Shown: piece after piece, positions 29,123 to 33,616 of the stretch | Layout of the letters: each line of letters opens with the position of its first letter | Position numbering within the stretch: position 1 is the first letter of the stretch | Source: Bacteroidales bacterium | Lineage (GTDB): Bacteria; Bacteroidota; Bacteroidia; Bacteroidales; Paludibacteraceae | Direction of reading: 5' to 3' | DNA length: 48,667 nt | Assembly: GCA_015061185.1 (NCBI GenBank) | Contig: SUWZ01000021.1 | Coordinates: forward strand, 1-48,667 | Program-made: the position numbers and the translations under genes | Notes under the pieces: model-generated | What the model was told of the DNA's origin: nothing | Databases searched by the model: none | What the model saw: the letters and a program-made list of their open reading frames with translations, nothing else

Positions 29123-30487
29123 TTAAACCAATTTCTCCAATTTAGCCACATTTTGGTCGATAACCTCCTGAGGCAAATCATAATTGGTAAGATCACCGGC
29201 ATTGAATTGATCGTATGCAGTCATGTCAATCAAACCATGACCGGACAAACAGAACAAAATATTCTTTTGAACTCCCTCTTCCTTAGCCTTCAACGCTTCC
29301 CTTATAGTTGCAGCAATTGCGTGAGCAGATTCAGGAGCAGGTATAATTCCTTCTGATTGAGCAAACAATGTTGCCGCTTGGAAACTTTCCAACTGTGGAA
29401 TATCGACACCCTCCATGTATCCGTCCTTAATCAATTGACTCACAATTGTTCCTGCACCATGGTAACGTAAACCACCTGCATGAATATGAGCAGGAGCGAA
29501 ATCATGCCCCAAGGTAAACATTGGCATCATTGGAGTTAATCCTGCCTCATCACCAAAATCATATTGGAAAATCCCTCTAGTCAATTTAGGACAAGAAGCC
29601 GGCTCAGCTGCAAGAAACTTTGTATTCTTTCCATCCAAAATAGTATGTCTCATGAAAGGGAAAGATATACCACCAAAATTAGAACCACCACCAAAACAGC
29701 CAATAACAATGTCAGGATACGCTTCTGCCATCTCCATCTGTTTTTCAGCCTCCAAACCAATAATTGTTTGATGTAAAGTAACATGATTCAAAACGCTACC
29801 CAAAACATACTTACAATTAGGAGTTTGCATAGCCAGTTCAACAGCCTCAGAAATTGCAGTACCCAAACTACCTCTATAATTTGGAGTTTCAGTCAAAATC
29901 TTTCGTCCCACTTTTGTGCTCATACTTGGAGAAGCAATCACTTGCGCACCAAATGTTTGCATAATCGAACGACGGTACGGTTTTTGTTCATAACTAACTT
30001 TCACCATAAACACAGCCAACTCCAATCCAAAAGCTTTTGCTGCATACGACAAAGCTGCGCCCCATTGTCCGGCACCGGTCTCTGTCGTAATATTAGTTAC
30101 CCCCTCTTGCTTACAATAATAAGCTTGAGCCAATGCTGAATTTAATTTATGAGAACCAATCGGACTCACACTTTCATTCTTAAAATAAATATGAGCCGGT
30201 GTATCTAATGCTTTTTCCAAACCGTATGCTCGAACCAAAGGCGTTGAACGGTAATTCTTATACATCTCATACACCTGTTCAGGAATCTCTATCCACGCAT
30301 CAGTTGTATTCAACTCTTGTTCAGAACATGCACGATTGAACACATGCGTCATATCATCCAACGTCATAGGCTTTTTTGTAGCCGGATTCAACATTGGCAA
30401 CGGCTTCGTCTTCATGTCAGCCACAATGTTGTACCATTGTTTCGGAATGGCATTCTCTTCGAGAAAGAATCTTTTTTGTCTTTCCAT
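29123..30487 (-). CDS. trpB: Tryptophan synthase beta-like protein, TrpB2 type
   Basis: TrpB is the PLP enzyme that makes tryptophan from indole and serine. The 454-residue protein belongs to the longer TrpB2 class. PLP-binding Lys K114 lies in SPIGSHKLNSALAQAYY, the catalytic Glu E136 in ETGAGQWGAAL, the phosphate-binding loop is FGGGSNFGG, and the end motif is SGHGLIDMTAYD. All look intact. No trpA or other trp genes are adjacent, so it may work as a stand-alone indole-salvage synthase, as proposed for TrpB2 proteins. Control by tryptophan is strongly indicated by the attenuator in its ~390-nt leader. Confidence 0.95.
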   Translation of the reverse strand: MERQKRFFLEENAIPKQWYNIVADMKTKPLPMLNPATKKPMTLDDMTHVFNRACSEQELNTTDAWIEIPEQVYEMYKNYRSTPLVRAYGLEKALDTPAHIYFKNESVSPIGSHKLNSALAQAYYCKQEGVTNITTETGAGQWGAALSYAAKAFGLELAVFMVKVSYEQKPYRRSIMQTFGAQVIASPSMSTKVGRKILTETPNYRGSLGTAISEAVELAMQTPNCKYVLGSVLNHVTLHQTIIGLEAEKQMEMAEAYPDIVIGCFGGGSNFGGISFPFMRHTILDGKNTKFLAAEPASCPKLTRGIFQYDFGDEAGLTPMMPMFTLGHDFAPAHIHAGGLRYHGAGTIVSQLIKDGYMEGVDIPQLESFQAATLFAQSEGIIPAPESAHAIAATIREALKAKEEGVQKNILFCLSGHGLIDMTAYDQFNAGDLTNYDLPQEVIDQNVAKLEKLV

Positions 30488-30520
30488 ACTTTTATTATTT
30501 TTCTAATAGTTAACAATTTT

Positions 30521-30713
30521 AGAAGTTGTTTAAAATCTTTCTTGAAATTCTTAAAGAAGTGAATTCGAACGGATTTTATAACTTAAAAGCAGAAATAGTC
30601 AACTATTCTCAACTTTAAGAGGTAAAAGCCTTCAAAAGCACACTCTAAGAAGTCACGATTTTACTTTTTATACTTTCGTTACTTTAGATTCAATAAAATT
30701 TTAAACGGCTTCT
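30521..30713. repeat. Inverted-repeat element D in the trpB leader
   Basis: The left arm AGAAGTTGTTTAAAATCT (30521-30538) and the inverse of the right arm, AGAAGCCGTTTAAAATTT (30696-30713), match at 15 of 18 positions. The 193-bp element has no reading frame and lies between the attenuator and the trpB start, so it is transcribed when the attenuator reads through. It looks like a decayed insertion. Confidence 0.5.
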
Positions 30714-30724
30714 TAATTAAAGGC

Positions 30725-30756
30725 AAAAAAATAACCGCAGGTGGATGCCTGCGGTT
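30725..30756 (-). terminator. Attenuator terminator (segments 3:4) in the trpB leader
   Basis: On the minus strand AACCGCAGG and CCTGCGGTT form a perfect 9-bp GC-rich stem with a 6-nt loop, followed by ATTTTTTT. It lies upstream of trpB and downstream of the Trp-rich leader peptide, not at the end of a gene. Confidence 0.92.
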
Positions 30757-30799
30757 TTATCATTTATATGCCATTAGAACCTCGTGCGAATCCACCAAT

Positions 30800-30850
30800 T
30801 TAGATTGAATCGCACCACCACCAATTGTTTGAAATTCTAAGTTTTTGCAT
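30800..30850 (-). CDS. Trp leader peptide with three consecutive Trp codons
   Basis: A 16-residue frame, MQKLRISNNWWWCDSI, ending in TAA. Codons 10-12 are TGG TGG TGG (30823-30815). It begins about 27 nt after the predicted transcription start and ends between attenuator segments 1 and 2. Three Trp in 16 residues, placed exactly before the 1:2 stem, mark it as a sensing peptide rather than a functional protein. Confidence 0.85.
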   Translation of the reverse strand: MQKLRISNNWWWCDSI

Positions 30851-30883
30851 ATCTTTAATTTTTGCCTTTAATGAATTACGTTG

Positions 30884-30915
30884 CAAATATAAAACACTCT
30901 TTTTTTATACACAAC
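30884..30915 (-). promoter_or_regulatory. Promoter for the trp leader and trpB
   Basis: Minus strand GTTG, 20 nt, TATATTTG: an exact -7 box and a -33 box with one mismatch. Transcription would start near 30877, 27 nt before the leader-peptide ATG. The 765-bp gap 30488-31252 thus holds element D, the attenuator, this promoter and, beyond about 30920, A/T-rich sequence and the promoter of the PBP gene. Confidence 0.7.
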
Positions 30916-31209
30916 AATTTTTCAAAAAAAAACTTCATACTAAATCCTCAATCTCTTTTTTCCTCCTATTTCCCCATTCATTTTCAATCGGTTTCGCACA
31001 GAAATATAAATGTTTTATTCATTCACCATCCATAATTCAATATTTTTTCGAGTTGTGAATGGTGAATAATTTTGCCATCTATATAAATATTTGAAATTTA
31101 ATACTTTAGGAACTGTAGTAATTTTAATACCATTACTATTTCCCTATCTATATCTTCATTCTATTTTAGGTTTTACTAAAAATCTTACCTGTATTAAAGG
31201 AATCTTCAT

Positions 31210-31252: not shown

Positions 31253-33616
31253 ATGTCTATACATAAAAATCTTTTAATTAAAATCGGAATCGGATTCGTC
31301 GCAATAATATTGGGTCTATATCTTTTTATCATTGCCATCAACCTCAATTTTTTAGGACTTTTTGGAAACTCCCCCACAAAGGAACAATTGGAAAATCCAA
31401 TCAACATGGAGGCCTCTGAAATCTATAGTGACGATGGTTTGTTGATAGGAAAATATTTCATCGAAAATCGCTCTTCCGTTGATTTGGAAAATATTTCACA
31501 AGCGTTTATCCAAACTTTAATTGAAACAGAAGATAAACGTTTCTACGAGCACAATGGGGTAGATTTTAAAGGTCTCTTCGGTGCATTCAAAGATGCTCTA
31601 CTTGGAAACGCTCGCGGAGCAAGTACAATTACGCAACAATTGGTGAAAAATCTATTTAAAACTCGAACTGAATTTTCCAACGGTCTATTTTGTAAAATTC
31701 CCGGTATTAGAACATTCATCATAAAGGTAAAAGAGTGGAAAGGTGCCATGACATTAGAGGAGATTTATTCTAAAGAGGAAATTCTGGAGATGTATGTCAA
31801 TACAGTCTATTTCGGAAATCACTCCTACGGAATCAAAGCTGCTGCTAAAAGTTATTTCAACCAATCTCCGGATAAACTTAACTTTCAACAATCTGCCACC
31901 TTGGTTGGAATCTTAAAAGCAACTACCTACTACAATCCTATTCGGAATCCGGAAAATAGTAAAAAGCGTAGAAATGATATTCTTGTCAACCTTCATAACG
32001 AAGGACTGATCAACAAGGAGACTTGCGACTCACTTTGCCAACTTCCAATAGAACTTCAACTCAACAACACATCTGACAACCGAGGAATTGCTCTTTACTT
32101 CCGAGAGGCGGTGTTTAATGAGATGCAATCTTGGTGTGAAGAGAATGGGAAAGACCTCTATCGAGATGGATTGAAGATTTATACCTCCATCGACTCTCGT
32201 ATGCAAAAGTATGCCGAAGAAGCGGTTAAATCCCAGATGAAAATTGTTCAAAATAATTTTAATTTACATTGGGGCGACAAAAATCCTTGGAGAGATGAAA
32301 ATCAAAATGAATTGAAAGGGTTTATCGAAGATCGCGTAAAAAAATTACCTGAATATAAACTTCTTTCAGAACGATACAACGGCAACACAGACTCCATTAT
32401 GGATGCTCTTAATCGCCCTCACCGCACAAAAGTAATTGATTATCAAACCGGACTGAAAGACACTATAATGAGTACGATAGACTCCCTAAAATACACATTA
32501 CGCTTTTTACACTGTGGCTTTGTTGTTATGGAGCCACAAACAGGAAAGGTCAAAGCGTGGGTTGGAGATGTTGATTTCAATTATTGGCAATATGACAAAG
32601 TAGTTGCCAAAAGACAACCGGGCTCTACGTTTAAATTATTTATCTACACAGAGGCTATTCGCAAAGGCCTATGTAGTTGCGACACTCGAGTGGATAGCGC
32701 AATCAATTGGAGCATAAAAGAGGAGGATGAAATAAAAATTTGGATGCCACAAAATGCCAATCGTACTTTCTCCGACGAAGAGATAACTCTAAAATCAGCA
32801 TTTGCCCGTTCTATCAATAGTGTTGCAGTACAATTAACCCGAGAATATAGTCCGGACAGCATTGTTCAATTGGCCCAATCCATGGGAATAAAAAGCAACC
32901 TTCGTCCTATTCCTTCCATTGGGTTAGGAGCAGAAGATGTTTCTCTTCTTGAAATGGTTACTGCCTACTCAACAATTGTCGATGAAGGAGAAAAACATAC
33001 CCCAATCTTAGTTACACGAATTGAAGATCGCAATGGTAACATTCTTTACGAGAACCATGGAGAAAGCGAAAAAGTGTTGGATTATGAAACAGCCTTTATC
33101 ATGCGAGATATGCTTCAAGAGGGACTAAGAGATGAGCATGGCACATCGCAACGTTTGAAGAAGTATCCTATCTTCAAGAATACAGAATATGGAGGAAAAA
33201 CCGGGACCTCTTCCAACTATTCTGATGCTTGGTATATGGGTATTTCCCCGAAACTTGTAGGTGGTGTATGGGTTGGAGGAGAATATCGCAGCATCCACTT
33301 CCGCGATGGCGCACACGGACAAGGAAGCCAGACAGCTCTTCCTATATTTGGCGATTTCATGAGTCGAGTGATGAGAGATAAAAATCTCGCTCACTATCAA
33401 GGTCTTTTTGGAGAACCGAAACAAGAAATATCAAAAACATACAACTGCGAGGAGCTTGAGAAGAAAAATATTGGAGAAGGATTCGTCAACTTTTGGAAAA
33501 AACTCTTCGGAAGGGATAAAAAAGATAGCATCAACAACGACACAACTACTAACAAGAACAAAAGCAGAAGAGAGAAAAGAAGAGAAAGGAGAGAACGCCG
33601 TAGAAACGGAAGATAA
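31253..33616 (+). CDS. Class A penicillin-binding protein (PBP1A-like)
   Basis: A bifunctional peptidoglycan synthase: an N-terminal membrane anchor (about 9-34), a GT51 glycosyltransferase domain (E93 in ETEDKRFYEHNGVD, then GASTITQQLVKNLF), and a transpeptidase domain with S458-x-x-K461 (PGSTFK), SxN in ARSINSVA and K649-T-G (GGKTGTSSN). At 787 residues it is full length. The C-terminal tail is strongly basic (KNKSRREKRRERRERRRNGR), which could bind acidic polymers or the membrane. It forms its own transcription unit, convergent with the MATE gene. Confidence 0.96.
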   Translation: MSIHKNLLIKIGIGFVAIILGLYLFIIAINLNFLGLFGNSPTKEQLENPINMEASEIYSDDGLLIGKYFIENRSSVDLENISQAFIQTLIETEDKRFYEHNGVDFKGLFGAFKDALLGNARGASTITQQLVKNLFKTRTEFSNGLFCKIPGIRTFIIKVKEWKGAMTLEEIYSKEEILEMYVNTVYFGNHSYGIKAAAKSYFNQSPDKLNFQQSATLVGILKATTYYNPIRNPENSKKRRNDILVNLHNEGLINKETCDSLCQLPIELQLNNTSDNRGIALYFREAVFNEMQSWCEENGKDLYRDGLKIYTSIDSRMQKYAEEAVKSQMKIVQNNFNLHWGDKNPWRDENQNELKGFIEDRVKKLPEYKLLSERYNGNTDSIMDALNRPHRTKVIDYQTGLKDTIMSTIDSLKYTLRFLHCGFVVMEPQTGKVKAWVGDVDFNYWQYDKVVAKRQPGSTFKLFIYTEAIRKGLCSCDTRVDSAINWSIKEEDEIKIWMPQNANRTFSDEEITLKSAFARSINSVAVQLTREYSPDSIVQLAQSMGIKSNLRPIPSIGLGAEDVSLLEMVTAYSTIVDEGEKHTPILVTRIEDRNGNILYENHGESEKVLDYETAFIMRDMLQEGLRDEHGTSQRLKKYPIFKNTEYGGKTGTSSNYSDAWYMGISPKLVGGVWVGGEYRSIHFRDGAHGQGSQTALPIFGDFMSRVMRDKNLAHYQGLFGEPKQEISKTYNCEELEKKNIGEGFVNFWKKLFGRDKKDSINNDTTTNKNKSRREKRRERRERRRNGR

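What the first reader, a model, noticed from the sequence alone, without database searches (positions are those of the whole stretch)
30725..30850. Complete tryptophan attenuator upstream of trpB in a Bacteroidota genome
Seen: a 16-codon leader frame with TGG TGG TGG, a 1:2 stem (8 of 9 pairs), a 7-bp antiterminator pairing (GGTGGAT with ATCCACC), and a perfect 9-bp terminator hairpin with a U run, all correctly ordered behind a consensus promoter and ahead of trpB. Known: ribosome-mediated trp attenuation is best studied in Enterobacteria. Inference: this trpB, which lacks neighbouring trp genes, senses charged tRNA-Trp in the same way. A stand-alone TrpB2 under its own attenuator is a neat example of convergent or widespread regulation; whether it has been described for this lineage is not known to me.
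Basis: partly seen in the sequence, partly recalled or inferred. Interest (0 to 1): 0.85.

Follow-up and report, generated by a model that had tools for sequence, protein, structure and literature searches.

The report
Tryptophan attenuator before a lone trpB2
A bacterium in which the other tryptophan-pathway genes we looked for are missing still carries one tryptophan-making enzyme, probably to salvage indole, and an RNA switch in front of its gene seems to turn it on when the ribosome runs short of tryptophan.

Summary
On the minus strand, ahead of trpB2 (29123-30487), lie a Bacteroidota-type promoter, a leader ORF MQKLRISNNWWWCDSI (30800-30850), a 1:2 hairpin, a 7-nt antiterminator segment and a terminator. 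It is not chance: similar leaders precede trpB2 in many Bacteroidales; in 53 distinct cases antiterminators match their own terminators far better than swapped ones (sum 1004 against 760.5, sd 20.3; 0 of 20000 permutations) and start 10-22 nt after the last Trp codon in 47 of 53. Ribosome-mediated Trp attenuation is thus well supported by comparison, untested by experiment. The kind is known: Rfam RF01692 is a Bacteroidota trp leader, found here mainly at trp operons; its model reaches 1 of 28 trpB2 leaders scanned, not this one. New is the class on stand-alone trpB2, in a genome (99.98% complete) without TrpA or TrpC; I infer control of indole salvage. In the family the attenuator is commoner where TrpA is absent (15 of 18 against 6 of 23, p 0.0004), but not significantly once descent is considered, and weakly in the order (10 of 19 against 11 of 29).

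The parts
30884..30917 (-). Bacteroidota-type promoter, TTG then TATATTTG (consensus recalled)
   Evidence: TAnnTTTG lies within 90 nt upstream of the leader ATG in 11 of the 16 sequences (window included; L004 and L006 are near-duplicates)
30800..30850 (-). leader ORF MQKLRISNNWWWCDSI, stop TAA at 30800-30802
30815..30823 (-). three tandem Trp codons (TGG TGG TGG)
   Evidence: recur in relatives
30784..30815 (-). 1:2 (protector) hairpin that hides the antiterminator segment
   Evidence: segment 2 paired with upstream leader at mean probability 0.73
30790..30796 (-). segment 2, GGTGGAT, antiterminator strand
30740..30746 (-). segment 3, ATCCACC: 5 nt in the terminator loop, 2 nt in its 3' arm
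30725..30756 (-). intrinsic terminator: 9-bp stem, loop CATCCA, U tract
29123..30487 (-). trpB2, stand-alone TrpB-like tryptophan synthase, 454 aa
   Evidence: only match to it in the genome
30521..30713 (-). MITE-like 193-bp stretch between terminator and trpB2 (not part of the switch)

Best explanation
A ribosome-mediated transcription attenuator that senses charged tRNA-Trp and controls a stand-alone TrpB2. With Trp plentiful, the ribosome runs to the leader stop codon (30800-30802) and covers GGTGGAT, or, with no ribosome there, the 1:2 hairpin hides it; the terminator forms and transcription stops before trpB2. When charged tRNA-Trp is short, the ribosome stalls on codons 10-12, the 1:2 hairpin cannot form, and GGTGGAT, just ahead of the ribosome, captures the terminator loop and the start of its 3' arm as they are made. 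RNA polymerase passes and trpB2 is made. As no TrpA or TrpC was found in the genome, TrpB2 probably makes Trp from indole taken up from outside. Shown: parts, order, conservation, covariation, spacing, gene absences. Modelled: the pairing switch. Inferred: the Trp response in cells and indole salvage. The confidence below is for the attenuation mechanism; I put indole salvage at about 0.7.
For: Anatomy. Detector controls. Own against swapped antiterminator-terminator pairs in 53 distinct elements: 1004 against 760.5 (sd 20.3), 0 of 20000; own above the swapped median in 49 of 53. Segment 2 starts 10-22 nt after the last Trp codon of the main cluster in 47 of 53, against 43% on average for swapped pairs; sd 4.8 nt against 12.6; relative to the stop codon it varies more, sd 11.8. 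Terminator covariation in 9 of 11 pairs. Folding of partial transcripts: with RNA polymerase just past ATCCACC, P(2:3) is 1.000 with the ribosome stalled on the Trp codons, 0.004 with no ribosome, 0.000 with it at the stop. No TrpA and no TrpC in the genome (both models fire in 14 of 14 control genomes); one TrpB.
Against: On the complete transcript the terminator wins in all three states (P 0.998 even with a stalled ribosome), so the switch must be kinetic, which is not shown. The 11-nt ribosome mask is assumed. The element is patchy: of the first seven loci listed, L002 and L008 have none, and G003, G029 and G036, with TrpB2 83-87% identical, have none. The link with TrpA loss is not significant on the tree (median p 0.25, or 0.125 with the traits exchanged). 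Segment 2 is paired upstream at 0.5 or more in only 31 of 53. In some members the best helix is short or misplaced (L007, L088, L121, L143). The true partner beats every other terminator in only 7 of 53. No expression data.
Confidence: 0.9

Rival explanations
1. The attenuator is as described, but TrpB2 is not used for indole salvage; it has another role (another substrate, or an indole source inside the cell that was not seen). This rival concerns the salvage step only.
For: The function of TrpB2 here was not tested; the attenuator also stands before trpB2 in genomes that have TrpA (6 of 23 in the family; 11 of 29 in the order).
Against: A Trp-codon leader ties the gene to Trp supply. For Thermococcus kodakarensis, TrpB1 and TrpB2 are reported as involved in indole salvage (title of Hiyama 2014 in the reference list, and one passage, of PMC11085991; the Hiyama paper itself not seen).
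Confidence: 0.25
2. TnaC-type arrest: the nascent leader peptide stalls the ribosome when free Trp or indole binds, rather than the ribosome waiting on Trp codons.
For: Short Trp-containing leader before a gene that may use indole (inference).
Against: Two to four Trp codons side by side in most members, with the rest of the peptide varying freely; the antiterminator is anchored on the Trp codons. The tna system works through Rho-dependent termination, not a competing hairpin (recalled).
Confidence: 0.04
3. A chance short ORF next to an ordinary terminator.
For: Terminators alone give many weak matches in a genome-wide search with the model built here.
Against: 0 of 435 shuffles, and 3 hits elsewhere in 1.1 Mb against 15 in the 600 nt before trpB2 of 80 loci; antiterminator covariation; the nearest upstream ORF of 100 aa or more is divergent, so there is no evident upstream gene to terminate.
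Confidence: 0.02

Closest known systems
Bacteroid-trp leader RNA (Rfam RF01692; Weinberg 2010, PMC2864571)
   Same: Bacteroidota; leader ORF with tandem Trp codons, an antiterminator segment, and the start of a terminator at the end of the Rfam model (alignment to L069).
   Different: In the family survey its 8 above-cut-off matches lie, in six genomes, about 6-7 kb upstream of trpA on the same contig and, in one (G051), directly before canonical trpB1; the eighth (G022) was not examined. The window's element is before stand-alone trpB2 and gets no RF01692 match. Of 28 trpB2 leaders scanned, one, L069, reaches the cut-off, with 49.2 bits against 49.
Enterobacterial trp leader (Rfam RF00513, E. 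coli trpL)
   Same: Same logic: Trp codons, 1:2, 2:3 and 3:4 pairings, U tract.
   Different: 21.2 bits against a cut-off of 41; stands before a lone trpB2; the antiterminator pairs with the terminator loop and 3' arm, not the 5' arm (the E. coli arrangement is recalled).
Stand-alone TrpB2 (NF009057, TIGR01415; nearest solved chains 6hul, 4qys, 6hte)
   Same: The enzyme belongs to it.
   Different: No description of attenuator control of a lone TrpB2 came up in the paper searches.

Membership tests
Ribosome-mediated Trp transcription attenuators | short leader ORF with tandem Trp codons behind a promoter | tested here: met
   promoter by consensus only
Ribosome-mediated Trp transcription attenuators | mutually exclusive 1:2, 2:3 and 3:4 pairings, kept by covariation | tested here: met
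   2:3 and 3:4; 1:2 pairing present in the window but less uniform across the set, 31 of 53
Ribosome-mediated Trp transcription attenuators | readthrough rises when charged tRNA-Trp falls | not testable with these tools
   needs expression data
Bacteroid-trp, RF01692 | covariance-model score of at least 49 bits | tested here: not met
   no match in the window at gathering; not among the 8 matches at E up to 10 for 30480-30960; no match in the genome at E up to 1, with stricter filters and 45 of 1005 candidates scored
Bacteroid-trp, RF01692 | Trp-codon leader with terminator in a Bacteroidota genome | tested here: met
   lineage inferred from the record titles of the nearest loci
Enterobacterial Trp_leader, RF00513 | score of at least 41 bits | tested here: not met
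   21.2 bits
TrpB2 / TIGR01415 | family score over the curated cut-off | tested here: met
TrpB2 / TIGR01415 | acts without TrpA | tested here: inconclusive
   no TrpA in the genome, but enzyme activity cannot be tested here

The most novel reading that the evidence does not exclude
In Bacteroidales that have lost Trp biosynthesis, a Trp-charging attenuator has been gained or kept on a lone trpB2, so that scavenging of indole made by neighbours is switched on only under Trp starvation; in about half of these elements (26 of 53) the antiterminator leans on the terminator loop and 3' arm as they emerge, a kinetic switch that differs from textbook 5'-arm capture.
Probability: 0.45. Interest if true: 0.65.

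Novelty: new variant of a known kind. Interest (0 to 1): 0.5.

Why it matters
It gives regulatory evidence for what stand-alone TrpB2 does in cells without the rest of the pathway, which enzyme assays alone do not settle, and it predicts Trp-controlled use of indole released by other bacteria; several near relatives come from rumen or reticulum (record titles). It also points to a class of Bacteroidales attenuators that Rfam's model reaches in only 1 of 28 cases scanned, diverse enough (53 distinct elements) to study how far a ribosome-gated switch can drift while keeping its spacing.

Tried and rejected
Viral contigs: 6 pattern matches, none a relative of TrpB2. Other Trp leaders: with the model built here (R1, from 20 of the 53 elements, chosen by me as nearest in layout), the 16 matches at E up to 1e-8 in the 61 family genomes are trpB2 leaders, G002's by inference from a contig end; in the own genome only the window's element is strong (1.1e-11). 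I fetched 15 further places. Two own-genome ones (E about 0.024) and 11 in other genomes (one of them fetched for a weak RF01692 match) showed no leader with terminator; L187 holds a Trp-paired ORF but no terminator that the detector accepts. L175 is the trpB2 leader of G002 and L177 a trpB1 leader of G051. The list was cut and most weak matches were not examined.

Association with TrpA loss: strong by plain counting in the family (15 of 18 against 6 of 23, Fisher 0.0004; 10 of 13 against 5 of 20 among genomes rated at least 90% complete, counted by hand). In independent pairs on the TrpB2 tree it never runs the other way, but only about 3 of 6 pairs are informative and the sign test has median p 0.25 (0.125 with the traits exchanged). 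In the order it is weak (10 of 19 against 11 of 29). I keep it as a suggestion. Rows set aside: G147, G169 and G205 (truncated TrpB2) and G176 (stops inside) were not fetched; G000 and G018 are counted in the family set. TrpA means over the Pfam cut-off in the family and E up to 1e-10 in the order. Three family leaders missed by the detector (L095, L096, L117) were added by eye after reading their sequences, and G002, where its leader ends a contig.

Limits of the detector: only ATG starts were sought, so counts are lower bounds. It also fires with other residues in place of Trp: of 14 residues tried on the 87 regions, Trp 37, Asn 22, Arg 12, Ser 12, Thr 8, the others 6 or fewer. Many of these leaders contain Asn runs (by eye), which may explain the Asn figure; not tested. 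The swap test does not correct for relatedness among the 53.

Equilibrium folding of the full transcript cannot show the switch: the terminator wins in every state.

Full report
WHAT IS THERE. Reading the minus strand from 30917 downwards: a promoter of the Bacteroidota type (TTG, then TATATTTG; consensus recalled) at 30884-30917, a 16-codon leader ORF MQKLRISNNWWWCDSI at 30800-30850, a hairpin at 30784-30815, and a terminator with a 9-bp stem at 30733-30756 and a U tract. The ATG of the next gene is at 30487. The segment GGTGGAT inside the hairpin is exactly complementary to ATCCACC in the terminator. The region folds at -49.6 kcal/mol, z -5.15. The gene is a TrpB-like enzyme of the stand-alone type (NF009057, TIGR01415); its nearest solved relatives are named tryptophan synthase beta chain 1 or 2 (6hul, 4qys, 6hte).

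THE GENOME. The assembly is rated 99.98% complete. It holds one match to TrpB2, no TrpA and no TrpC; the two family models fire in 14 of 14 control genomes. Its only chorismate-binding protein is nearest to isochorismate synthase (206.5 bits, just under that family's cut-off of 224.75; anthranilate synthase models score 47.7 or less). TrpD, TrpF and TrpG were not searched. So the switch stands before the only tryptophan-forming enzyme found, and the likely substrate is indole from outside (inference).

RELATIVES. Of the 80 trpB2 loci kept, 15 carry a Trp-codon leader with a terminator: L003-L007, L009, L012, L013, L018, L024, L036, L053, L055, L068 and L069; they range from MAGs whose titles name rumen or reticulum to Tannerella (L009) and Dysgonomonas (L069). 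L002 and L008, among the first seven listed, have none. Of 61 genomes drawn from the window's family, itself included, 41 have trpB2 and 21 of these 41 have the element. In an order-level draw of 149 genomes, 54 have trpB2; I took the upstream DNA of 48 of them (leaving the two already in the family set and four truncated or broken genes) and the detector found the element in 21.

COVARIATION. After removing 3 near-duplicates, 53 elements remain. The best helix between the stretch after the Trp codons and the terminator sums to 1004 for true pairs and 760.5 (sd 20.3) when terminators are swapped between elements; 0 of 20000 permutations reach it. The true partner beats every other partner in only 7 of 53, many terminators being alike, but it beats the median partner in 49 of 53. 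Examples: GGTGGAT/ATCCACC (window), AAGTGGAG/CTCCACTT (L004), GATAAACAATGG/CTATTGTTTATC (L095), GCTTCCTGT/ACAGGAAGC (L154). In an alignment of 20 elements the terminator has 11 predicted pairs, 9 with changes on both sides in at least one sequence. The swap test does not correct for relatedness.

SPACING. The antiterminator segment begins on average 16.2 nt (sd 4.8) after the last Trp codon of the main cluster, 10-22 nt in 47 of 53; swapped pairs give 43% in that range on average (at most 64% in 2000 trials) and sd 12.6. Its distance to the stop codon varies more (sd 11.8), yet it lies within 20 nt of the stop in 44 of 53. This is what one expects if a ribosome stalled on the Trp codons leaves the segment free and a ribosome at the stop covers it; the footprint size is recalled, not measured here.

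MODEL OF THE SWITCH. With the transcript ending just after ATCCACC, the 2:3 pairing has probability 1.000 if the first part is masked by a ribosome on Trp codon 12, 0.004 with no ribosome, and 0.000 with a ribosome at the stop; for the finished transcript the terminator has 0.998 or more in every state. The mask, 11 nt beyond the codon, is my assumption. The switch would be decided while RNA polymerase is still near. In the window, and in 26 of 53 elements, the pairing leans to the 3' arm (with the loop); in 21 it leans to the 5' arm, as in E. coli (recalled); 6 are balanced. Across the set, segment 2 is paired with upstream leader at mean probability 0.60, at 0.5 or more in 31 of 53.

KNOWN KINDS. 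RF01692 (Bacteroid-trp) comes from Weinberg 2010 (PMC2864571; I saw only passages found by term search: its row in a table, y for RNA, y for cis-regulatory, n for switch, Bacteroidetes). In the family draw it exceeds its cut-off in 8 of 61 genomes; in six of these it lies about 6-7 kb upstream of trpA on the same contig (G001, G023, G024, G035, G038, G055), in one directly before canonical trpB1 (G051), and in one (G022) on a contig that I did not examine. Weak matches under the cut-off hit the trpB2 leaders of G005, G007, G025 and G035. Four further trp-operon regions that I fetched and scanned (G003, G027, G029, G054) each have one Trp-codon leader about 6 kb upstream of trpA; none of these reaches the RF01692 cut-off. 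G054, of the window's genus, has attenuators on both the trp operon and trpB2. Of 28 trpB2 leaders scanned at the cut-off (window, 11, 16), one matches, L069. So the kind is known in this phylum; the trpB2 class is the new part. Paper searches for a described trpB2 or Bacteroidota trp attenuator and for TrpB2 function listed no title that describes it; of the papers listed I looked only into PMC2864571 and PMC11085991 (passages), and the library lacks most subscription journals.

TRPA LOSS. In the family, 15 of 18 genomes without TrpA and 6 of 23 with TrpA have the element (Fisher p 0.0004). On a TrpB2 tree the two traits change at least 8 and 7 times; in independent pairs they never go against this trend, but the sign test has median p 0.25. 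In the order draw the figures are 10 of 19 and 11 of 29. The link is a suggestion.

A SIDE FINDING. Between the end of the terminator stem and trpB2 lie 245 nt. Of these, 193 (30521-30713) look like a miniature transposable element with inverted ends AGAAGCCGTTTAAAAT ... ATTTTAAACAACTTCT; a diverged copy of 194 nt lies elsewhere in the genome (129 identities, 51 mismatches; score 40.5 against 7.9, sd 6.4, at most 23.0 for 200 shuffles). Without it the distance would be 52 nt, inside the 36-64 nt of 11 of the 12 relatives whose attenuator terminator located (the other has 84). Some family members also have long distances without my having looked for an insertion (for example L107, L108, L114).

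Noticed in passing
window 30521-30713: MITE-like 193-bp stretch with inverted ends between attenuator and trpB2; a diverged 194-bp copy at L230:1507-1700 and a similar 5' end at L231.
   Followed up: partly
L057 around 4902 (+): A further Trp-rich leader with terminator (MQNICINIQSWRWWRTLMRHHSTAYMS) downstream of trpB2, perhaps the leader of an adjacent trp operon.
   Followed up: no
L122, L171, L172, L173: trp-operon regions of G054, G027, G003 and G029 each have a Trp-codon leader and terminator that does not reach the RF01692 cut-off.
   Followed up: partly
window 30670-30766 (+): The model R1 also scores on the other strand over the terminator (22.3 bits, E 0.0041), on the strand of the penicillin-binding protein gene that starts at 31253.
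   Followed up: no
G027 (window's genus): A genome of the same genus rated 100% complete has TrpA and TrpC but no trpB2 at E up to 1e-50, the reverse of the window's genome.
   Followed up: no
L027, about -76 to -44 before trpB2: A terminator like those of the W-R-W leaders but no Trp ORF with an ATG start was found before it; perhaps another start codon or a decayed leader.
   Followed up: no
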